This document shows positions 22,561 through 35,554 of a stretch of 44,434 bases of DNA, piece by piece. The notes below the pieces were generated by a model. That model was not told the origin of the DNA and made no database searches. It saw only the letters and a list, made by a program, of their open reading frames with translations. The position numbers and the translations under genes were made by a program. The DNA comes from Candidatus Competibacter sp. (lineage in GTDB: Bacteria; Pseudomonadota; Gammaproteobacteria; Competibacterales; Competibacteraceae), in assembly GCA_029624815.1 (NCBI GenBank), contig JARSSH010000068.1, positions 1 to 44,434 on the forward strand, in the 5' to 3' direction. Numbering within the stretch: the first letter of the stretch is position 1; every line of letters starts with the position of its first letter.

Positions 22561-23478
22561 CTACACCTCCTCCACCTGCCTTAATCCCGCCAGTCCTTGC
22601 CAGTAACCATCGCAAGCACCATGCGGCAACGTGGCATTGATCTCTCGCGCCGCCTCCAGCGGATCACGGTCCCCACGCAAACAGGCCGCGAATGCCGCGA
22701 TAACCGCCTCGGTTCTCTCGGTCTGTGGACTGACCCGCAACACATCCACTTTCAGTTCCCGCAACTCCTCCAGCTCCAGCAACAGGTTACAGGTCTGCGC
22801 CGATTGCGTCTGAATGCCATTGAGCGCCAGAAACGCCTGCCCCTCGCGAGTGCTCACGGTCAGACCCTCCGGGTAATCCAGACAGCGGAAGCGGCAATCG
22901 TCCTTGGGCAAATCGTGATGGCGGGCGGTAAAGCAGCGCGCCGAATACGCCAGTGGCAAGCGGCCGTAGACGAAGATCTCGGTTTCCATCCCCGTTGGCC
23001 GCTCCGCCTGCATCGCCGCCAGCGTCTCGGCCGACAGCTCCACCGGCATCACCCAGCGTTTGGCGCCCAAACCGGCCAGGAAGCGCAGAGTCCGGTCGTT
23101 GTAGACGTTGATGCCAGTGCCCAGCACGAACGACGCACCCCGCGCGGACAGCAGCCGCACCGCGCCCATGTCGTTGGCTTCCACGGTGAAGCGGCCGTTC
23201 TCGCACAAGCGGCGCAAGGTCTTCAGTTCCGACTCGGCCTCCAACAGCGCCATGGTGGACAGCACCACTTCCTTGCCGGCGACGCTCAGCCGTTCGGCCA
23301 GCGCCAGCCACTCCTCGGTATTCAGCGCGCGGCGCTTGGAGCAGATCGTTTCGCCGAGATACACGATATCGACGGGCGACGCGGCGATCCGCTCGTAGAA
23401 ATCCAGCAGGGTTTCCTTGGGCCAGTAATACAACACCGGTCCCAGCGCCAGTTTCGGCATGTGTGGTTCAATCGTCAT
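22561..23478 (-). CDS. ubiV: Ubiquinone biosynthesis protein UbiV (U32 peptidase family)
   Basis: UbiV pairs with UbiU to hydroxylate the ubiquinone ring without oxygen, using prephenate as oxygen donor in E. coli. The 305-residue protein keeps the four [4Fe-4S] cysteines in the UbiV pattern: Cys46 (GETICSKRR), Cys182, Cys195 and Cys199 (CRFRC). The ATG at 23478 follows GGAG with good spacing; the frame upstream of it is open but unrelated. The stop of ubiU lies 12 bases before it, so the two are one transcription unit. ubiT is not in the window. Confidence 0.94.
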   Translation of the reverse strand: MTIEPHMPKLALGPVLYYWPKETLLDFYERIAASPVDIVYLGETICSKRRALNTEEWLALAERLSVAGKEVVLSTMALLEAESELKTLRRLCENGRFTVEANDMGAVRLLSARGASFVLGTGINVYNDRTLRFLAGLGAKRWVMPVELSAETLAAMQAERPTGMETEIFVYGRLPLAYSARCFTARHHDLPKDDCRFRCLDYPEGLTVSTREGQAFLALNGIQTQSAQTCNLLLELEELRELKVDVLRVSPQTERTEAVIAAFAACLRGDRDPLEAAREINATLPHGACDGYWQGLAGLRQVEEV

Positions 23479-23489
23479 GGCGATGACTC

Positions 23490-24515
23490 CTATTGCCAGG
23501 TCCGATGATAAGCGCCCAAGGTCGTTTGGTGGCCTTCGGACACCTTGCCCAGTTCTCGCAACCATTCCGGCTTGGGCGCGTAAGCGGTCGGACTGCGCCG
23601 GCACGCGTCGATGGCCGCGCGCCAGACCTTGGTGATCTGGGTCACGTAGGCCGGACTGCGTTGGCGACCCTCGATCTTGATCGCGGCGATACCCATGTCT
23701 TGCAACTCCGGCAGCAATGTCAGCGTATTGAGGCTGGTCGGTTCCTCGATGGCGTAATAGGTCTGATCCGCCACCGTGAACCGGCCCTTGCACAGCGTTG
23801 GATAACCGGCCGGCTCACCCGGCGCGTGGCGGTCGATCAGCAAGCCGCCGAGCCGGGTTTCCAGGCCCTGCGGCGTTTCTTCCCAGCGTACCGCCTTGGC
23901 CGGCGAGCAGACCCCGCACATGTTGGGCGATTCGCCGGTGACGTAGGAGGACAGCAGACAGCGGCCTTCGACCATGATGCACAGCCCACCGAAGCCGAAC
24001 ACCTCAAGATCCACCGGGCTGTTTTCGCGCACATGACGGACCTGCGGCAAGGAGAGGACGCGCGGCAGCACCACCCGGCGGATGCCGAAGTGCTCATGAT
24101 AAAAGCGGATCGCCTCGTAGTTGGTGGCGGAACCCTGCACCGACAGATGCAGCGGCAGGTCGGAATGCCGGCGGTGGGCGTAGTCCAGCACGCTGATGTC
24201 GGCGGCGATCACCGCGTCCACCCCCAAGTCCGCCGCTTGATCCACCGCTCGCCGCCAGCGTTCCCAACCGGACGGTTGCGGAAAGGTGTTGAGTGCGACG
24301 AACACCCGCCGACCCCTGGCATGAGCGTAGTGCACACCCTGCGCGGCGGTCTTGGCGTCGAAGTTCAGGCCGGGAAAATGGCGGGCGTTGGTGTCGTCGC
24401 GAAAGCCGATGTAAACCGAATCGGCTCCATGATCGACGGCGGTTTTCAGCGAGGGGAGATTGCCGGCGGGACAGACCAGTTCCAGCGGTTTGGACGGAGT
24501 GGATACGGTAGGCAT
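23490..24515 (-). CDS. ubiU: Ubiquinone biosynthesis protein UbiU (U32 peptidase family)
   Basis: The 341-residue partner of UbiV in oxygen-independent ubiquinone hydroxylation. It carries the UbiU iron-sulfur cysteines Cys179 (FGGLCIMVEGRC), Cys186, Cys203 (NMCGVC) and Cys242 (TLCKG), spaced as in the E. coli protein. The U32 family hallmark GGLCIMVEGRC-LSSY is intact. A weak GGAAA precedes the ATG. The serine-hydrolase gene ends only 40 bases upstream on the same strand, so read-through is possible. The pair implies ubiquinone-dependent anaerobic respiration or growth at low oxygen. Confidence 0.94.
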   Translation of the reverse strand: MPTVSTPSKPLELVCPAGNLPSLKTAVDHGADSVYIGFRDDTNARHFPGLNFDAKTAAQGVHYAHARGRRVFVALNTFPQPSGWERWRRAVDQAADLGVDAVIAADISVLDYAHRRHSDLPLHLSVQGSATNYEAIRFYHEHFGIRRVVLPRVLSLPQVRHVRENSPVDLEVFGFGGLCIMVEGRCLLSSYVTGESPNMCGVCSPAKAVRWEETPQGLETRLGGLLIDRHAPGEPAGYPTLCKGRFTVADQTYYAIEEPTSLNTLTLLPELQDMGIAAIKIEGRQRSPAYVTQITKVWRAAIDACRRSPTAYAPKPEWLRELGKVSEGHQTTLGAYHRTWQ

Positions 24516-26722: not shown

Positions 26723-28021
26723 TCATTCTCCCCGCTCTCGGGCGATGGCTCGATAGCCGATATCGGTGCGGTAATAGGCGCCCTCCCAACGCACGCGCTT
26801 GACCAGGTTGTAGGCCCGGTTCTGCGCCTCGGCGACCGTGCCGCCGAGCGCGGTGGCGCACAGCACCCGGCCGCCGTGGGTCACGACATGACCCTCCTTG
26901 GTTTCCAGTGTGCCGGCGTGGAACAACTTGCCGGCATCGCCCAGTTCCTCGTCATGGCGGGGCAAACCCTCGATCACGTCGCCCTTGCGATAGGCGCCCG
27001 GATAACCGGCGGCGGTCATCACCACTCCCAGCGCGGCGCGCGGGTCCCAATCCGTCGTCATTTCGTGCAGTCGCCCGTCCAACGCCGCCTTGCACAGATC
27101 CACCAGATCGGAGCGCAGGCGCAGCAGCAATGGCTGGGTCTCGGGATCGCCCAGCCGGCAGTTGTATTCCAGCACCTTGGGACCGTCGGCGGTGATCATC
27201 ACCCCGGCGTAGAGGAAGCCGACATAACGGCAACCTTCCGCCGCCATGCCGCGCACGGTCGGCTCGATGATCTCGGCCATGATGCGGTCGTGCAGTTCCG
27301 GAGTGACCACCGGGGCCGGAGAATACGCACCCATGCCGCCGGTGTTGGGACCGCGGTCGCCGTTGTCGCGGGCCTTGTGATCCTGCGACGAGGCCAGCGG
27401 CAGGATGTGCTCGCCGTCGGTCATGACGATGAAGCTGGCTTCCTCGCCACGCAGAAACTCCTCGATCACCACCTGCCGGCCGGCTTCGCCGAAATCGGCG
27501 CCGCTCAGCATGCCGCGCATGGCGGCGATGGCTTCCTGCTCGCTTTGGGCCAGGATCACGCCCTTGCCGGCCGCCAGCCCATCGGCCTTGACCACGACCG
27601 GCGCACCCATTTCACGGATAAAGGCTTCCGCCGCGTTAGGGTCGGTAAAGCTCCGGTAGCGGGCGGTGGGGATCTGATGGCGAGCCAGGAAATCCTTGGC
27701 AAAGGCCTTGGAGCCTTCCAGTTGCGCCGCTGCCTGGCTCGGCCCGAAACAAGGCAGGCCGGCGGCGGCGAAACGGTCGACGATTCCCAGCACCAGCGGC
27801 ACTTCCGGGCCGATGATCGTCAGATCGATGCGATGATCCAGGGCGAACTGGAGCAGGTCCGGCGGGTCGTCGGCGGTAATGACGATGTTGGTGACCTTGG
27901 GTTCGCGGGTGGTGCCGGCGTTGCCGGGTGCCACGTAGACAGTATTGACCCGGCTGGATTGCGCCACCTTCCAGGCCAGGGCGTGTTCGCGGCCACCACC
28001 GCCAACGATCAGGATGTTCAT
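26723..28021 (-). CDS. purD: Phosphoribosylamine-glycine ligase
   Basis: PurD (GAR synthetase) joins phosphoribosylamine and glycine with ATP, step two of purine synthesis. The 432-residue ATP-grasp protein shows MNILIVGGGGREHALAW, GPEVPLVLGIVD, KADGLAAGKGV, DRGPNTGGMGAYSP and LEYNCRLGDPETQ. The start at 28021 matches the family N-terminus exactly; the frame upstream is open without similarity. purH lies 53 bases upstream, separated by the palindromic repeat at 28032-28065, so purH-purD is an operon. The ribosome site is weak (GAGGG, ten bases upstream, supplied by the repeat). Confidence 0.97.
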   Translation of the reverse strand: MNILIVGGGGREHALAWKVAQSSRVNTVYVAPGNAGTTREPKVTNIVITADDPPDLLQFALDHRIDLTIIGPEVPLVLGIVDRFAAAGLPCFGPSQAAAQLEGSKAFAKDFLARHQIPTARYRSFTDPNAAEAFIREMGAPVVVKADGLAAGKGVILAQSEQEAIAAMRGMLSGADFGEAGRQVVIEEFLRGEEASFIVMTDGEHILPLASSQDHKARDNGDRGPNTGGMGAYSPAPVVTPELHDRIMAEIIEPTVRGMAAEGCRYVGFLYAGVMITADGPKVLEYNCRLGDPETQPLLLRLRSDLVDLCKAALDGRLHEMTTDWDPRAALGVVMTAAGYPGAYRKGDVIEGLPRHDEELGDAGKLFHAGTLETKEGHVVTHGGRVLCATALGGTVAEAQNRAYNLVKRVRWEGAYYRTDIGYRAIARERGE

Positions 28022-28074: not shown

Positions 28075-29667
28075 TTAGTGTCGGAAATGCCGCATTCCAG
28101 TGAATACCATGGCCATGCCGTGCTCGTCGGCGGCGGCGATCACCTCGCTGTCGCGCATCGAACCACCCGGCTGGATGACGGCGGTGATCCCGTATTCGGC
28201 GGCCAGATCGATACCGTCGCGGAACGGAAAGAAGGCGTCGGAGCCCATGGCCGCGCCCTTCAGATCCAGCTTTTCCTCTTGCGCCTTCATCGCGGCGATG
28301 CGCGCCGAGAACACCCGGCTCATCTGGCCAGCGCCGACCCCGAGAATCATGCCGTCCCGGCCGTAGACGATGGCGTTGGATTTGACGAACTTCACCACTT
28401 GCCAAGTAAACAGCAAATCGGCCAGTTCCCGATCGCTGGGCTGGCGCTGGGTGACCACCTTCAAATCGGACAATCCCACCTGGCCCAAATCACGGTCCTG
28501 CACCAGCAAACCGCCGGTGACCCGCTTGTAATCCCAACCCGGCGCCCGCGCGCTGTCCCATTGACCACAGGCCAGTACCCGCACGTTTTGCTTGCTGGCG
28601 GTCGCCGCCAGCGCCTCCGGCGTCACGTCCGGGGCGATGATCACCTCGACGAACTGCCGGTCCACGATCGTCTTGGCGGTGACGGCGTCCAGCGGCCGGT
28701 TGAAGGCGATGATGCCGCCGAAGGCCGAGGTCGGGTCAGCCTGAAAGGCACGGTCATAGGCGTCGAGAATGCTCGAACCGACCGCCACGCCGCAGGGGTT
28801 GGCGTGTTTGACGATCACGCAGGCCGGCGCGGCGAAGCTCTTGACGCACTCCAGCGCGGCATCGGTGTCGGCGACGTTGTTATAGGACAGTTCCTTGCCC
28901 TGCAACTGCCGGGCGGTGGCGATGCAGGCTTCGGCCGGCTCGGGCTCGACGTAGAACGCCGCCTGCTGGTGCGGGTTTTCGCCGTAGCGCATGTCCTGGG
29001 CCTTGACGAACTGCGCGGTATAGCTACGTGGGAACGGGTCGCGCCCGCCCTCGGCGCGGATCGAACCGAGATAGTTGGCGATGGCGCCATCATAGCGGGC
29101 GGTATGCTCGAACACTTTGACCGCCAGATCGAAGCGGGTAGCGGCGCTGACCACCCCGTTGCCGGCGCGCATCTCGGCCAGTACTCGTTCGTAGTCGCCG
29201 GCATCGACCAGCACGGTGACGGCGGTGTGGTTCTTGGCCGCCGCCCGCAGCATCGCCGGCCCGCCGATGTCGATATTCTCGATGGCGTCGGCCAGCGCGC
29301 AGTTCGGTTTGGCGACCGTGGCCTCGAAGGGATAAAGATTCACCGCCAACAGATCGATGGGCGCGATGCCGAACTGGTTCATCGCCAGATCGTCCTCGCC
29401 GCGCCGACCCAGCAGCCCACCGTGCACTCGGGGATGCAGGGTCTTGAGCCGCCCGTCCATCATTTCCGGAAAACCGGTGTAATCGGCAACATCGATGACG
29501 GGAATGTTGTTTTCAGCCAGCAGCCGGGCGGTGCCGCCGGTCGAGAGCAGTTCCACATCGAGTTCGACCAGGGCGCGGGCGAAATCGACGATGCCGGTTT
29601 TGTCGGAAACGCTGAGCAGGGCGCGGCGGATGGGAAGAGCGGGTGTTGGGTTCATATAGGGGTCCAT
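28075..29667 (-). CDS. purH: Bifunctional AICAR transformylase / IMP cyclohydrolase
   Basis: PurH completes IMP synthesis: the C-terminal domain formylates AICAR and the N-terminal MGS-like domain closes the ring. The 530 residues include [36 protein letters not shown], the transformylase Lys-His pair in KHANPCG, and [10 protein letters not shown] near the end. The ATG at 29667 is used here; the in-frame ATG five codons later is an equal candidate because no clear ribosome site favours either. It is the upstream gene of the purH-purD pair. Confidence 0.97.
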
Positions 29668-29717
29668 TGCCTCGATGAAAGGGAGTTGGCCAGGATGGCA
29701 AACAGCGCGACCGATGT

Positions 29718-30386
29718 TCAGGCGGGGTCCGCCGCCGGCACTGGCCCGAAATACAGATCGTAGAAGCGATCCTTTTCCGGGTCGTACTGCATCAATTCGC
29801 CGTTCTCCAGATCGTAATACCAGCCGTACAGATTCAGGGAACCTTCCTCAACTCGTTGCCGAATAAACGGGAAGGTCAGCAGATTGCTCAGCGAAGTGCG
29901 CACGCCGGCCCGTTCGCAGGCCCGCTGTTTGAATTCGCGGCTGGCGTCCGGCCAGCGCCGCAGCACTTCGTCGCGGGCGGGGGCGGCAATCCGCACCCAG
30001 GGCGCGATATACCCTTCGCCCTCGTCATTTTCACCGTAGCCATCCAACAGGGCGTTGATACCGCCACAGTGCGAATGACCGAGCACAATGATGTTATGAA
30101 CCCGCAAGTTACAAACCGCGAATTCCAGGGCGGCGCTGGTGCCGTGATAGCGACCGGTGGTTTCATAGGGCGGCACCAGGTTAGCGACGTTGCGCACCAC
30201 GAACAAATCTCCCGGCGCGGAATCGGTGAGGATGGCGGGATCCACCCGGGAATCGCTGCACCCGATCAGCAGGGTGCGCGGGGTTTGCCCCTGCATCGCC
30301 AGCCGGTTGAACAGCTCCCGGTTCGGCTCGAAGCTCTTGACGCGAAAGCGCTGGAAACCTTTCAGCAGTTCGTGGATGTCGGACAT
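29718..30386 (-). CDS. can: Beta-class carbonic anhydrase
   Basis: A 222-residue cytoplasmic enzyme interconverting CO2 and bicarbonate. Zinc ligands are Cys43 (in CSDSR), His104 and Cys107 (HSHC), with the Asp45-Arg47 catalytic dyad; this is the standard active beta-CA set. The start lies inside the preceding gene: the first 25 bases overlap the 3' end of the NuoM-like gene, so translation is probably coupled to it. Beta-CAs usually supply bicarbonate for carboxylases. Coupling to a proton-channel subunit suggests a CO2 hydration role linked to the membrane (inference). Confidence 0.96.
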
Positions 30387-31981
30387 GGAAGGATCTGCGG
30401 TGGCTTGGATTCGCGCGCATTATACCCCGCCATGGCCGAAGCACCTTCAGCCGCTTGTCCCGCCGCTAGCCGCGCCACCCAAGCGGTGCTGGCGCCCGCC
30501 GTGATCCCCTGCACCCACTGGGGAAACAACCCGCCGGTCAGCACCAGCAGCCCCAGCACACCAGCCACCAGCAGCTCGCGTGGCCGCAGATCCAGGGCGA
30601 ACGCCAATTCGGGACTGGCCACCGGTCCCAGGAACGCCCGTTGGAAAAAGCCCAGGAAATAGGCGGCGCTCAGAATCACTCCCACTAGCGCCACCAACGC
30701 CAGGCCGGGGGATACTTGCATAATCCCGAGCAGAATCAGCAACTCGGCAACGAAGCCGTTGGTTCCCGGCAAACCGATGGACGCCATCCCCAGCAGCAGG
30801 AAAAAGGCGGCAAGCAGCGGCAGCGGACCGACCAGCCCGCCCAGACTGGCCAGATCGGTCGAGCCCAGCCGGTGGTGCAGAAACCCGACCAGCAGCATGA
30901 GGCCGCCCGCGACCACTCCGAAATTCAGCAGTTGAAAGATCGCACCCTGTATGCCCTGGCTGTTCATGGCGGCGATGCCCACGATCACCAGTCCGACATG
31001 GCTGACGCTGGAAAAAGCCAGCATCTTGCGGAGGTTGGATTGCCGCAACGCCACCAGCGCCCCATAGAGCGCGCCGAACCCGCCCAGCACCGCCATCAAC
31101 CAGAAGCATTCGCGCGCCGCCGACGGGGCCAGCGGCAGGGCAAAGCGCAGGATGCCGAATGCACCGAGCTTGAGACCCACCAATAGCGCGCTCAGACCCA
31201 CCGGACCTTCCCGCAGCACGGTCGGCAACCAGGTATGAAACGGAAACAGCGGGGCTTTGACGGCAAAACCGAAAAACAGCAGCAGGAAGACGGCGGTCTG
31301 CATCGAGGGGGACAGCGGCTGTTCGAGCAGCGTCAGGTAATCGAACGACAATCCGCCGGGGATCGACGCCCCCGTGGCGGCGGCGTGATGGAGCCCGAGC
31401 AACAGGATGGCGAACAGTAGCGGAATACCGCCGGCCAGCATGAACAGGGTGTACTTGATCGCGGCGAAGCGCCGTTCCGGGCCGATGCCCCACAGACTGA
31501 TCAGGAAATAGATCGGTACCAGGGTCAGCTCCCAAAACAGGAAGAACAGCACCAGATCCAGGGCGCAGAACACGCCCATGGTGACGCCTTCCAGCGCCAG
31601 CAGCAGGGCGAAATACAGTCGCGGCAATGTCTGAATGCTGGTCCAGGACGCCAGGATCACGGCGCAGAACAGCAATGCGGTCAGCGGCGGGAACAGGGCG
31701 GAAATGCCGTCGATCCCCAGCAGGTAATGGACGTTCAGGCTGGGAATCCACACCGCTCGCTCCATGAGTTGCATCCCGGCATCTTCCGGTCGCAGCGCGG
31801 CCAGCATTAGCAGTGACAGGGCCAGTTCTAGGCCGGCTCCGGCCAGCGCCCAGAGTCGCACGGTCCGATGCTCGCGCAGAAAGGGCAGCACCAGCGCCCA
31901 GAGCAGCGGCAGCAGGATCAAGAAGCTTAGAATGGGGATGCCGATTGAATTGACTGGCGATAGGGCTTCGGAGTTTATCAT
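30362..31981 (-). CDS. NuoM-like proton-conducting membrane protein (complex I/Mrp antiporter family)
   Basis: A 539-residue protein with about 13-14 membrane segments of the NuoM/MrpD type. The key proton-path residues of NuoM are all present: Glu151 in the FWELTLVPIYF helix, Lys242 (FAVKAPLFPFHTWLP), Lys271 (GLKLGAFG) and Glu413 (GTNGFVAELL). No other complex I gene is adjacent. The only partner is the carbonic anhydrase gene, whose start overlaps its last 25 bases. Upstream lies IS1595 debris 16 bases away, so any native promoter or partner on that side has been removed; no ribosome site is obvious. It may be an orphan NuoM, a DabB-like subunit, or half of a CO2-uptake module. Confidence 0.88.
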   Translation of the reverse strand: MINSEALSPVNSIGIPILSFLILLPLLWALVLPFLREHRTVRLWALAGAGLELALSLLMLAALRPEDAGMQLMERAVWIPSLNVHYLLGIDGISALFPPLTALLFCAVILASWTSIQTLPRLYFALLLALEGVTMGVFCALDLVLFFLFWELTLVPIYFLISLWGIGPERRFAAIKYTLFMLAGGIPLLFAILLLGLHHAAATGASIPGGLSFDYLTLLEQPLSPSMQTAVFLLLFFGFAVKAPLFPFHTWLPTVLREGPVGLSALLVGLKLGAFGILRFALPLAPSAARECFWLMAVLGGFGALYGALVALRQSNLRKMLAFSSVSHVGLVIVGIAAMNSQGIQGAIFQLLNFGVVAGGLMLLVGFLHHRLGSTDLASLGGLVGPLPLLAAFFLLLGMASIGLPGTNGFVAELLILLGIMQVSPGLALVALVGVILSAAYFLGFFQRAFLGPVASPELAFALDLRPRELLVAGVLGLLVLTGGLFPQWVQGITAGASTAWVARLAAGQAAEGASAMAGYNARESKPPQILPCPTSTNC

Positions 31982-31997
31982 GGCGGCATCGAAAGGC

Positions 31998-32163
31998 TCA
32001 TATGGGCAAACGGATGGAACGCGGAATCATGAGGAGTCGCGGGAAGTGATGGCTCACGCGCTTGAGGTTGTGCGTCCACTCGAAGATGGCGGCGTACCGC
32101 GCCAGGTAGCGCTTGTGGACGCCCCGGAATGGTCGCGGGAAATTGCGCAACCCCGTCCAGACC
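31998..32163 (-). pseudogene. C-terminal fragment of an IS1595-family transposase
   Basis: The minus strand encodes VWTGLRNF, RPFRGVHKRYL and FEWTHNLK, the conserved ending of IS1595/ISXO2-type transposases, with a stop at 31998. It is cut at its 5' side by the terminal repeat of the IS4-family element at 32164. The N-terminal piece of such a gene lies 2 kb away at 34177-34341 in the same orientation, so the two may once have been one gene. Confidence 0.7.
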
Positions 32164-33631
32164 CTGTCCATTACACACATCGTCTAGCTGGTTGAGTGGG
32201 CATGGAGATCAGAAGCCAAATGCATCCCCCAGGCGAGGTCGCGGGCGCGCTGCAAGCCGATCCAGAGGGCTTGGGGGCCGGGAGGGCCATCGCACGTGCG
32301 GCCCAAGTGGCCGCCGAGGCGGGCGATCCAACCGAGCATGACTGGCAGCGGTGGCGGGATGACTGGCGGGGGCTGGCGATGGATGGCGACGTAAACGGCC
32401 CGCCATTCGGCCGGATCCAGCACGGCGTCACAGGACAATTCGGGCGTGACCCGCCCCAACACGGTCAGGTATTGAATCCGCCACGCGATGATCAAGTACA
32501 ACGCCAAGGCGGGCTCCAGCCGCTCCAGGGTGCTGAGCCGCAAGGCTTCCACCCGGCAACCGGTTTTGAAGATGCGAAAAAAAACCTCGATGCTCCAACG
32601 AGTTCCGTACCACTGGATCAATTCGGCCGCTTGAGCGAGCGCAACCGCCGCGCGGTTGGTCAGCAACCGCCAGTCGAGCGGTTCGACCCCGGCCGGCGGG
32701 GATTCTTCCCGCGCCCGCAGCGCGGTGATCGTCACCGGTTCGGCCCCCTTGGGCGACAAGGTGACCCGTTCGGCCCGCACCGTCAGCACCACCGGCCGGC
32801 TCGGCCGGTTAGGCCGGGCCGGGAGGGCAAACGTGACCTCGCCCAACACCGGCGCTTGCGCCAGCCGGTCCCACGGATGGTCACCCTCGGCCAGGCAGCG
32901 GTTGTGGGTGGCCCGGATCAGCCAGTCGATCCGCGGTTGCCGGCGTGCCCGGACCATGAATTCGTGGATGTCGCATTCCCGGTCGGCGACGTAGACCAGC
33001 CGGGTATCGGGCAGATCCGCGGCCAGTTCGGCGCAGCGTTCGAAGCCTTCCAGCCAGCGCATGCTTTCCTTGGCCTCGATCGGCCAGTGCCGTTTATCCT
33101 CGCCGAACGTCGCCCGGTCGCGGGTCCACAGCCAGGCGTCCAGTACCCCCAACGGCACGCCATCCGGTGTCACCGCCAGGGTCGGATGCACGTACGGCCC
33201 GTGCTGGCGCAGGTAGCTCAGTGGCCCCAGTCCGGCGATGCCCGGTTGGGCGGTATAGTCCAATTCCGTGCTGTCCTGCACGCACAAGACCACCGGATGG
33301 TGGCCCATCCGCTCAATGCCGCATTCCCAGTGTGGCGTCAACACCGCCTGCCAGTCCACGTCTTCGTGCGCCAACAGCCGATACGCCGCCTGGGTCTCCG
33401 CCCAGCCCCCACAGGCCACCGGAATGCTGGCGCTGGGTTGCGCCCCCAACCGTTCCGCCACTCGCACCAGCCGTCGGTTCAACCGCGCGTCCCCCAGCTT
33501 CGCCCCACCCAATTCCGCCGCCGCCCAACTCACCGCCGTCGTCTCCGTCATCCTCTGCTCCACCATCATCTGTACCAACTCCACCAGATGGGGTCAGCGG
33601 CTCCTGGGATCAAGATCTGTGTAATGGACAG
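32164..33631 (-). mobile_element. Complete IS4-family (IS50-like) insertion sequence
   Basis: 1468 bp bounded by 18-bp inverted repeats, CTGTCCATTACACA-x-ATC, at 32164-32181 and 33614-33631, differing at one base. No direct repeat of the flanks was seen; the left flank is an IS1595 gene but the right flank is not, so a deletion followed insertion. It holds one intact transposase. Confidence 0.88.
32184..33584 (-). CDS. IS4-family (Tn5/IS50-like) transposase
   Basis: 466 residues. The N-terminal DNA-binding region (AELGGAKLGDARLNRRLVRVAERL) matches Tn5-type transposases. The DDE catalytic residues are Asp104 (VQDSTELD), Asp201 (VADRECD) and Glu333. The IS4 signature Y-R-E-K is complete as Tyr326, Arg329, Glu333 and Lys340. 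The gene fills the element from just inside one terminal repeat to near the other and shows no frameshift, so it is probably active. Confidence 0.9.
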   Translation of the reverse strand: MELVQMMVEQRMTETTAVSWAAAELGGAKLGDARLNRRLVRVAERLGAQPSASIPVACGGWAETQAAYRLLAHEDVDWQAVLTPHWECGIERMGHHPVVLCVQDSTELDYTAQPGIAGLGPLSYLRQHGPYVHPTLAVTPDGVPLGVLDAWLWTRDRATFGEDKRHWPIEAKESMRWLEGFERCAELAADLPDTRLVYVADRECDIHEFMVRARRQPRIDWLIRATHNRCLAEGDHPWDRLAQAPVLGEVTFALPARPNRPSRPVVLTVRAERVTLSPKGAEPVTITALRAREESPPAGVEPLDWRLLTNRAAVALAQAAELIQWYGTRWSIEVFFRIFKTGCRVEALRLSTLERLEPALALYLIIAWRIQYLTVLGRVTPELSCDAVLDPAEWRAVYVAIHRQPPPVIPPPLPVMLGWIARLGGHLGRTCDGPPGPQALWIGLQRARDLAWGMHLASDLHAHSTS

Positions 33632-33645
33632 CGTCTAAGGCCACT

Positions 33646-34427: not shown

Positions 34428-35554
34428 AGAGTTGCCCATCAGTAAGTCCACATAACTTATTGAACAATAAATGAGTTTCTGAGATTCCAGAGGCCGGCGA
34501 CCGCAAGGATAAAATCATCCGCCAAATGTTTCAGGTGGTTTCTCAGACGAATGCTCAACACCCGAAAGATTTTCATACCACCGATGGCATGTTCCACGAG
34601 GACTCGAATCCGTCCGATCTGGCGATGGTCTCGCCGTTGCTGGCGCGTTAACCGAGGATCAGGATTCTTTTTAGACTTTCGGGTTTTTTTGTGGGGGATG
34701 TAAATTTGTTTGGGTGATGCATAATCAGTCTGGATGCCTTGGTAGCCAAGATCGACAAAGACTTTAGTGGAGTTAAACCAATCTATTTTTGGGTCCAATT
34801 CGGTTTTTAATAATGAGTAATCATGCTGACTTCCAGGGACGGTTTCGCCAAGAATCAGGATGCGCTTATTGGTATCGGAAATGGTTGTATTCTTGACGGT
34901 ATGAAAGCCTTTTTTTCCGCTATATGTTTTTTTTGACGAGAGGGCTTTTTAGGGCGTTGCAGAGGTCTTTCCGTGGCATCGATCAAAACATGATCAACGC
35001 TTTCAATAAGTTGTAGGAGTTCCCGTGGATTGTCGGTGGTGCGCTTTGGTAAAATCCTCAGATTTTTTTGGGTTTGTTTTAAAATAGGCAACAAGCGCTG
35101 TATCGAAGTGAACGCGCAGCCACGACTGATCTTAAAGGTGAAGGCCAGAACGTCATAAGTCGGATAGTTTTTCAGATAGAACAAGAGAAAAAAGAGCTGA
35201 TTCCCTGGTGAACCAAGCGATGGCTTGCGCCCACCCCCTATTTTTCTTTGGCGAGGTTTCTTGGGTTTTCTTCGATGGGCTTCGATCTGGCGTTGTTTTA
35301 TACAGGAGGAAAATTCGTTCGAGAGTGTTTCGAAGTCGTCGCGCCCTAGACCGATGAGTGATCTTAATTGGCGATCATCTTTCAGAATCTCTGAAATATT
35401 CAGGGGGTTTATTTGCATTTTTCTCCAAGAGAGCGTCAAGGCGCTTGAGACTCAAATTTTGTTGATTTCAAGTCATTGAGTTGTAAAGGGAAGCTGAAGC
35501 GGGATTCGTTGTAACACATTGAATAAAATAAGTAAATTATTTATGAACTAATCT
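34428..35554 (-). mobile_element. IS5-family insertion sequence
   Basis: About 1.13 kb. The left end at 34428 is set by the shared boundary with the 244-bp copy at 20848-21091. The right end at about 35554 is proposed because AGATTAGTTCATAAATAATT read inward there matches AGAGTTGCCCATCAGTAAGT at the left end at 13 of 20 positions. No target duplication is certain. The element ends about five bases before the edd start codon. Confidence 0.75.
34457..35418 (-). CDS. IS5-family transposase (two frames joined at an A8 run)
   Basis: Frame one starts at the ATG at 35418 and frame two ends at 34457. They join at eight A on the coding strand (34927-34934), where CAA-AAA-AAA contains the slippery A-AAA-AAA. 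A -1 shift there gives RQKKTYSGKKGF and a single 320-residue protein. It has the IS5/DDE_Tnp_4 residues Asp147 (LIDATERP), Asp223 (FVDLGYQG) and Glu276 (RVLVEHAIGG). Upstream of frame two there is no start that would include the second Asp region, so fusion is required. Programmed frameshifting is known in the IS427 group of this family. Confidence 0.85.

What the first reader, a model, noticed from the sequence alone, without database searches (positions are those of the whole stretch)
29718..31981. NuoM-like proton channel translationally coupled to a beta-carbonic anhydrase
Seen: a full-length NuoM-type protein with all four proton-path residues (Glu151, Lys242, Lys271, Glu413) is encoded without any other complex I subunit, and its last 25 bases overlap the start of an intact beta-CA gene. 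Known: cyanobacterial NDH-1 complexes hydrate CO2 using NdhD/NdhF subunits with a CA-like Cup protein, and DabA/DabB couples a PF00361 protein to a CA-like zinc protein. Inference: this pair could be a compact proton-driven CO2-hydration module built from a NuoM-type subunit and a genuine beta-CA.
Basis: partly seen in the sequence, partly recalled or inferred. Interest (0 to 1): 0.75.

Follow-up and report, generated by a model that had tools for sequence, protein, structure and literature searches.

The report
Stray proton-channel subunit of DAB complex
The proton-channel gene beside this carbonic anhydrase gene is probably a displaced part of a larger bacterial machine that uses the proton gradient to turn CO2 into bicarbonate, and the carbonic anhydrase is most likely just a neighbour with a promoter of its own.

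Summary
The genes are as described: an intact 539-aa NuoM-type protein (30362-31981, -) overlaps by 25 nt an intact beta-carbonic anhydrase (29718-30386, -). The proposed two-gene module is not supported. The NuoM-like protein ("M3") is the last gene of a conserved DAB-type cluster, M1 - DabA (PF10070) - L (NuoL/DabB-like) - M2 - M3, also seen in Methylobacter, Nitrosomonas, Thiobacillus and others. In this genome M1, DabA and L-M2 lie on another contig; an IS4 element sits just upstream of M3. In the family M3 goes with DabA (21 of 22 M3 genomes, p = 3e-6), not with the CA (p = 0.4). The CA sits before purH with a conserved TATAAT box in 21 of 22 loci examined, with or without M3; here that box lies inside the M3 frame, so M3's tail reads CA promoter DNA. 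M3 is beside the CA in 9 of 22 M3 genomes and in none of 14 gammaproteobacterial M3 loci sampled outside the family. M3 keeps all four proton-path residues. The M subunits share ancestry with the arm of Nitrospira-type two-NuoM complex I. This multi-channel DAB variant had its gene order sketched in 2017; its function is inferred.

The parts
30362..31981 (-). M3: NuoM-type antiporter-like protein, 539 aa, distal subunit of an extended DAB (DabA-type) cluster
   Evidence: cluster membership; phylogeny
29718..30386 (-). beta-carbonic anhydrase, 222 aa, first gene of a CA-purH-(purD-like) neighbourhood
30362..30386 (-). 25-nt overlap of M3 and CA reading frames
   Evidence: not found in the nine other junctions measured
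30419..30424 (-). TATAAT, conserved -10-like box of the CA gene, here read by M3 as Tyr-Asn
   Evidence: Present 37-47 nt before the CA start in 21 of 22 loci examined; no -35 partner was called by the consensus scan
30362..30436 (-). Lineage-specific C-terminal tail of M3, reading CA upstream DNA; predicted disordered
   Evidence: pLDDT under 50 for residues 516-539
28075..29667 (-). purH, conserved neighbour downstream of the CA
   Evidence: TIGR00355 785.9 bits; CA-purH in 21 of 22 CA loci examined
26723..28021 (-). purD-like gene (name recalled, no profile run on it)
   Evidence: ORF; follows purH in relatives
32159..33636 (-). Complete IS4-family element (transposase 32184-33584), at the point where L-M2 would be expected upstream of M3
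   Evidence: NF033590 371.4 bits; 23-nt terminal inverted repeats 32159-32181 / 33614-33636

Best explanation
[quoted passage not shown] Shown: recurrent gene order M1-DabA-L-M2-M3 in other proteobacteria, co-occurrence of M3 with DabA in the family, one clade for each module, Glu/Lys/Lys/Glu kept in M1 and M3, and scattering of the cluster over two contigs in this genome. Inferred: protons flowing in through L, M1 and M3 (M2, which lost three of the four residues, may be structural) drive CO2 hydration at the zinc site of DabA, so that bicarbonate is made inside the cell; several channels would couple more than one proton per CO2, or relay energy along the arm as in complex I. No RuBisCO match was found in this genome, so the bicarbonate probably feeds other carboxylations. 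The overlapping beta-CA is a separate gene with its own promoter, beside which M3 came to lie after rearrangement of the cluster.
For: In the family 21 of 22 M3 genomes have DabA, 12 of 13 genomes without DabA lack M3 (p 2.8e-6), while M3 and CA are not associated (p 0.41). M1-DabA-L-M2-M3 together in G020, G024, G025, G028 and in 12 of 14 wider stretches of named records (the other two, Chthoniobacterales and Rubrobacter MAGs, have DabA-L-M-M-N). Class sample of 369 genomes: M3 in 17, 14 outside the family; M2 beside M3 in 14 of 14, DabA in the genome in 13 of 14. Own DabA: PF10070 875.8 bits; a relative's DabA aligns with DabA2 (9rd0) with its zinc and dyad residues Cys351, Asp353, Arg355, His524 and Cys539 conserved. 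Trees: M3 100/100, sister to M2; own NuoM elsewhere. CA with TATAAT and purH irrespective of M3.
Against: M3 lies beside the CA in 9 of 22 M3 genomes and the adjacency needs four changes on both the M3 and the CA-PurH tree, so it recurs more than a single accident would. Three family genomes have DabA without M3 (G001, G032, G035; two of them about 75% complete). In the window M3 has no DAB gene beside it. L may or may not descend from canonical DabB (AU p 0.449). No biochemical evidence exists for the extended type; the proton-driven step is taken from DAB2.
Confidence: 0.72

Rival explanations
1. First reader's module: M3 and the adjacent beta-CA together form a compact proton-driven CO2-hydration device.
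For: Tight junctions (-25, -4, +6, +6 nt) in four genomes and both genes intact; proton path and zinc motifs complete.
Against: M3 tracks DabA and not the CA; CA occurs with the same box and purH without M3; no CA near M3 in 14 of 14 sampled loci outside the family; ordinary beta-CAs are freely reversible and need no driver (recalled).
Confidence: 0.06
2. M3 is a DAB subunit, but its place beside the CA is selected: DAB subunit and CA are co-expressed because both handle bicarbonate.
For: Adjacency in four separate places of the M3 and CA-PurH trees; in the genus-g5 genomes M3-CA-purH is kept while the genes upstream of M3 differ; Methyloversatilis has M1-DabA-L-M2-M3-SulP-CA in one row.
Against: Spacing from -25 to +692 nt; adjacency lost or never present in ten M3 genomes; CA keeps its own -10-like box.
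Confidence: 0.2
3. The extended complex runs the other way: an exergonic reaction of DabA (for instance bicarbonate dehydration) drives ion export through the membrane modules, as the COGNAT authors guessed for YbcC operons in 2017.
For: Several NuoM-type modules with intact proton-path residues, as in pumps; suggestion in PMC5700660 (passages).
Against: DAB2, the studied relative, is reported as PMF-driven CO2 hydration (PMC13144422, introduction and passages).
Confidence: 0.1
4. The displaced M3 of this genome is a leftover, or works alone as a proton channel.
For: Separated from the rest of the cluster here and in several relatives; IS4 just upstream.
Against: Frame intact, residues kept; DabA, L-M2 and M1 intact elsewhere in the genome; scattered but complete sets also in G125 and G379.
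Confidence: 0.08

Closest known systems
DAB/DAC complexes (DabA-DabB; DAB2 of Halothiobacillus neapolitanus, PDB 9rd0)
   Same: DabA (PF10070) with the five active-site residues of DabA2; an L subunit matching DabB2 over residues 32-368 (126.8 bits).
   Different: Four antiporter-like modules (L, M1, M2, M3) instead of one; M1 and M3 keep the NuoM Glu/Lys/Lys/Glu, whereas DabB2 is described as lacking the ion-pair motifs. Two related gammaproteobacteria have the ordinary type: L-type 559-aa subunit, small membrane protein, DabA (G046, G052).
YbcC 'clade C' operons of the COGNAT paper (PMC5700660)
   Same: YbcC/DabA gene upstream of a NuoL homologue, with NuoM and SulP genes nearby (passages); very likely the same cluster type.
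   Different: That paper gave no function, and the passages seen do not mention the relation to two-NuoM complex I, residue loss in M2 or any CA pairing.
Two-NuoM ('2M') complex I of Nitrospira
   Same: One NuoM groups with M2/M3 (100/100), the other with M1 (98/96); its L groups with DAB L (96/98).
   Different: Those loci carry NuoN and, by the literature, redox subunits (PMC7784846 passage); DabA takes the place of the redox part here (inference).
Ordinary NuoM of complex I
   Same: Fold (Z up to 53), PF00361, four proton-path residues.
   Different: Not in a nuo operon; separate clade from the NuoM of this genome.
Cyanobacterial NDH-1MS with Cup proteins
   Same: Works-like analogy: antiporter-type membrane subunit coupled to CO2 hydration; M3 aligns with chain D of 6tjv (Z 51.1).
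   Different: There ferredoxin oxidation is the driver (introduction of PMC13144422); no Cup homologue was sought here.

Membership tests
Extended DAB cluster (M1-DabA-L-M2-M3) | M3 orthologue falls in the clade of M3 proteins encoded next to DabA-L-M2 | tested here: met
   100/100
Extended DAB cluster (M1-DabA-L-M2-M3) | DabA with DabA2 active-site residues in the same genome | tested here: met
   G000:C24 PF10070 875.8 bits; residues read and aligned for a relative
Extended DAB cluster (M1-DabA-L-M2-M3) | M3 adjacent to M2/DabA | tested here: not met
   Not in this genome (window vs C24); met in G003 (L-M2-M3), G020, G024, G025, G028
DAB/DAC transporters | PMF-driven CO2 hydration / DIC accumulation | not testable with these tools
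   Needs expression or uptake experiments
DAB/DAC transporters | L subunit descends from canonical DabB | tested here: inconclusive
   Groups with 2M NuoL (96/98) but DabB + L clade not rejected, AU p 0.449
   9 of 22 in the family (2 not assessable, 1 at 3 kb), 0 of 14 outside
   Conserved TATAAT in 21 of 22 loci with or without M3 speaks against it; transcripts not available
Complex I NuoM | Encoded in nuo operon and grouping with NuoM | tested here: not met
   nuo L/M/N on C60; separate clade
beta-carbonic anhydrase (PF00484) | Zinc ligands and Asp-Arg dyad (CxDxR, HxxC) | tested here: met
   CSDSR at 43, HSHC at 104; 1EKJ alignment
Cyanobacterial NDH-1MS | CupA/CupB subunit | not tested
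   No Cup query was run

The most novel reading that the evidence does not exclude
DabA has been set on the membrane arm of a two-NuoM complex I: a CO2-hydrating 'complex I' with four antiporter modules (M1 and M3 with the full NuoM proton path, L with its Glu and Lys), which spends several protons per CO2 to build a bicarbonate gradient steeper than two-subunit DABs can, or relays energy along the arm as complex I does.
Probability: 0.4. Interest if true: 0.78.

Novelty: new variant of a known kind. Interest (0 to 1): 0.45.

Why it matters
How antiporter-like modules are coupled over a distance is an open question of complex I research. A DabA complex that carries several such modules and no redox chemistry would be a natural test: the same channels coupled to a simple hydration reaction, with the number of modules varying from one (DAB1, DAB2) to four. 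It would also widen the set of CO2-uptake machines in methane, ammonia and sulfur oxidisers and in wastewater Competibacteraceae. And it shows that a gene overlap alone is weak evidence for a functional module.

Tried and rejected
Rejected: stray copy of the genome's own NuoM. Rejected: chance ORF (intact; profile and fold matches).

Not settled: whether L descends from DabB (AU p 0.449). Not settled: how the M3-CA adjacency arose; both trees need four changes. The divergent upstream ORF shared by G009, G024, G020 and G019 (ycgL-like, name recalled) suggests that absence is ancestral, while the like junctions of G031 and the own genus (same promoter read in frame) suggest a shared event. A search for M3 remnants upstream of the CA in 12 loci without M3 directly upstream found nothing significant (best E about 0.09). 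The IS4-linked break between M2 and M3 is a guess from collinearity with G003.

Rows dropped: the two C54 PF00361 genes of G000 and the G037 and G051 rows were mis-framed and left out (correctly framed G037 and G051 rows were used); the careful M tree used 60 of the 82 rows. CA upstream regions were read for 22 of the 30 family genomes with a CA match; G007, G011, G017, G025, G029, G032, G033 and G035 were not fetched. CA proximity outside the family was judged with two CA queries by tblastn over stretches of 4-20 kb; more distant CAs could be missed. DabB2 does not appear among the 50 rows shown. Only M3 was folded; no subunit contacts were modelled. Promoter scan by consensus found no full sigma-70 site in 29600-32300, a result against an easy promoter call.

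Papers: PMC13144422 introduction and passages; passages only of PMC5700660, PMC4633670, PMC11338360, PMC7784846, PMC7895386; others as search listings with the start of the abstract. Searches in which I saw no description of an M3-CA pair, of this module assignment or of the relation to two-NuoM complex I; the library lacks most subscription journals.

Full report
WHAT IS THERE. The window is the whole of contig C68 (44,434 bases) of a 3.63-Mb draft genome, G000. On the minus strand lie an IS4 element, the NuoM-like gene (M3 below), a beta-carbonic anhydrase (CA), purH and a purD-like gene.

THE PARTNERS ARE NOT IN THE WINDOW. A search of 59 genomes (own and relatives) gave 22 with an M3 orthologue (74-100% identity), all in the same family, and in several a roughly 1040-aa PF00361 protein lies beside it. 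Reading these loci shows a cluster M1 (NuoM-type, 488 aa in G028) - DabA (PF10070, 871.6 bits in G028) - L-M2 (one 1037-aa protein in G000: N-terminal half NuoL-like with PF00662 and matching DabB2 of 9rd0, C-terminal half NuoM-like) - M3. In G000 M1, DabA and L-M2 are on C24 (locus L119: 16044-17495, 12703-16017, 4970-8083, all minus) and M3 on C68. In G003, of the same genus, L-M2, M3, CA, purH and the purD-like gene are in one row, with DabA and M1 on another contig. In G020, G024, G025 and G028 M1-DabA-L-M2-M3 are together; the CA is on another contig in G020, G024 and G025 and was not found in G028. Similarity of the window to G003 stops at the 5' end of M3 (window about 31945), and that of C24 about 120 nt beyond M2; a complete IS4 element begins about 180 nt upstream of M3. 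A break between M2 and M3 is the simplest reading; that the IS caused it is a guess.

OUTSIDE THE FAMILY. Among the named records, DabA-L-M2-M3 (L and M2 mostly separate genes) is seen in Methylobacter and other Methylococcales, Nitrosomonas, Nitrosovibrio, Thiobacillus, Methyloversatilis, Dechloromonas, Rhodocyclaceae and others. In the 14 wider stretches fetched (L129-L142) M1 lies upstream of DabA in 13; the fourteenth (L135, Chthoniobacterales) begins inside DabA; L134 and L135 (Rubrobacter and Chthoniobacterales MAGs) have DabA-L-M-M-N. In an even draw of 369 genomes of the class, 17 have M3 at E <= 1e-170, 14 of them outside the family (G182 is evidently the same genome as the Thiotrichales record L136, and G086 matches only 381 of 493 positions, in two frames). 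Of the 14, M2 is next to M3 in 14, L is in the stretch in 12, DabA in the stretch in 11 (one cut by the contig end) and in the genome in 13 (exception G265, 77% complete); neither CA query matches in any of the stretches. In G125 and G379 DabA lies at another locus, so scattering of the cluster is not peculiar to the window.

CO-OCCURRENCE. In the 37 genomes of the family (G000-G036), M3 and DabA: 21 both, 1 M3 only (G002, 83% complete), 3 DabA only (G001, G032, G035), 12 neither; Fisher p = 2.8e-6. M3 and CA (match at E <= 1e-30): 19, 3, 11, 4; p = 0.41. In the 25 genomes at least 90% complete: 16, 0, 1, 8 (p = 8e-6) and 14, 2, 7, 2 (p = 0.6). The tests ignore shared ancestry.

THE CA IS A UNIT OF ITS OWN. 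Of 22 CA loci examined, 21 have purH downstream, whether M3 is beside the CA (9), 3 kb off (1), elsewhere in the genome (6) or not found (5 of 6; the exception is G010). TATAAT lies 37-47 nt before the CA start in the same 21 of 22; shuffled upstream sequences hold it in 0.62 of 22 on average, at most 4, in 300 rounds, and the background is 0.0026 per 75 nt. The rows are related, so this is conservation and not 22 independent trials, and the consensus scan called no full promoter here. In the window the box (30424-30419) is read by M3 as Tyr-Asn. Past its last conserved block the M3 tail differs from lineage to lineage; of the 22 family sequences only the three of the own genus and G031 run into M-x-G-Y-N-A, the translation of the CA box (in G033 this part is unreadable). 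Residues 516-539 have pLDDT under 50. M3 stop to CA start: -25 (G000), -4 (G031), +6 (G002, G003), +66, +72, +78, +204, +692, and +3002 in G030. The overlap is thus a lineage-specific run-on into CA upstream DNA. The short junctions of the own genus and G031 leave translational coupling possible there.

HOW OFTEN DID THE PAIR ARISE? Of 22 M3 genomes, 9 have the CA within 700 nt, 1 at 3 kb, 10 do not, and in 2 (G033, G036) the contig ends under 700 nt past M3. The M3 tree and the CA-PurH tree both follow the genera for the most part and both need four changes of the adjacency state. This recurrence speaks against a single accident and is kept as a rival (selected neighbourhood).

WHERE M3 BELONGS. 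In trees of 76, 82 and 60 PF00361 modules M1, M2 and M3 each form one clade (M3 100/100 in the careful tree). M3 is sister to M2; both join one NuoM of Nitrospira/Nitrospinota loci that carry L-M-M-N (100/100), and M1 joins the other NuoM (98/96). The NuoM of G000 sits with ordinary NuoM. L joins the NuoL of the same Nitrospira loci (96/98), but a clade with two canonical DabB proteins is not rejected (AU p 0.449). M3 keeps Glu151, Lys242 and Lys271 in 29 of 29 and Glu413 in 28 of 29. M1 keeps all four in 14 of 15 (Thiobacillus lost three). M2 lacks the first Glu at that place, has Arg for the first Lys and lacks the last Glu in 14 of 14, keeping Lys271, so it may be structural or work differently.

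MECHANISM. DAB2 is reported as a proton-motive-force driven CO2 hydratase whose DabA2 zinc site has Cys351, His524, Cys539 and the Asp353-Arg355 dyad (PMC13144422; introduction and passages). A family DabA aligns with these five residues conserved, and the own DabA has the same two motifs. From this I infer that the extended complex hydrates CO2 at DabA, driven by protons through L, M1 and M3. That more channels mean more protons per CO2 is inference; the COGNAT authors made the same guess about ion number for these operons. No RuBisCO match was found in G000, so the use of the bicarbonate is probably anaplerotic. A second beta-CA lies on C44.

WHAT IS KNOWN. The 2017 COGNAT paper (passages) described YbcC (PF10070, now DabA) operons with NuoL, NuoM and SulP genes ('clade C') as a new type of membrane complex of unknown reaction. 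So the cluster type is in print. In Methyloversatilis M1-DabA-L-M2-M3 is followed by a SulP-like gene (name recalled) and a CA, the one non-family locus examined in which a CA was seen close by; that CA is 33% identical to the window's.

VERDICT. The pair is a real but local arrangement; the NuoM-like protein is a displaced subunit of an extended DAB complex. Interest is moderate: the two-gene module falls, but the complex it points to is a good test system for coupling of antiporter modules.

Noticed in passing
L119:4973-6478 (-) and M2 of 13 other loci: M2, the NuoM-like half of the L-M2 fusion, lacks both Glu positions and has Arg for the first Lys in 14 of 14 sequences, with a Glu two residues later in 13 of 14: a consistently altered antiporter module.
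   Followed up: partly
L197 (G125) and L196 (G379): In G125 M1-L-M2-M3 stand together without DabA, which is on another contig; in G379 only M2-M3 stand together, DabA elsewhere.
   Followed up: partly
L134 and L135: Rubrobacter and Chthoniobacterales MAGs have DabA followed by L-M-M-N, i.e. DabA in front of what looks like a whole distal complex I arm.
   Followed up: partly
L119:8084-12702: About 4.6 kb separate DabA and L-M2 in this genome, with a 703-aa and a 225-aa ORF on the opposite strand and small ORFs.
   Followed up: no
L198 (G086):8745-10167: M3 of G086, a one-contig genome, matches in two adjacent pieces, so it may be frameshifted.
   Followed up: no
G000:C44:26989-27447 (L163): A second beta-CA (PF00484, 190.4 bits) in the same genome.
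   Followed up: no
window 22561-24515: Adjacent ubiV and ubiU (anaerobic ubiquinone biosynthesis; NF047965, NF047963).
   Followed up: no
window 34457-35439: Two adjacent ORFs that look like pieces of a broken IS5-type transposase (name recalled, no profile run).
   Followed up: no
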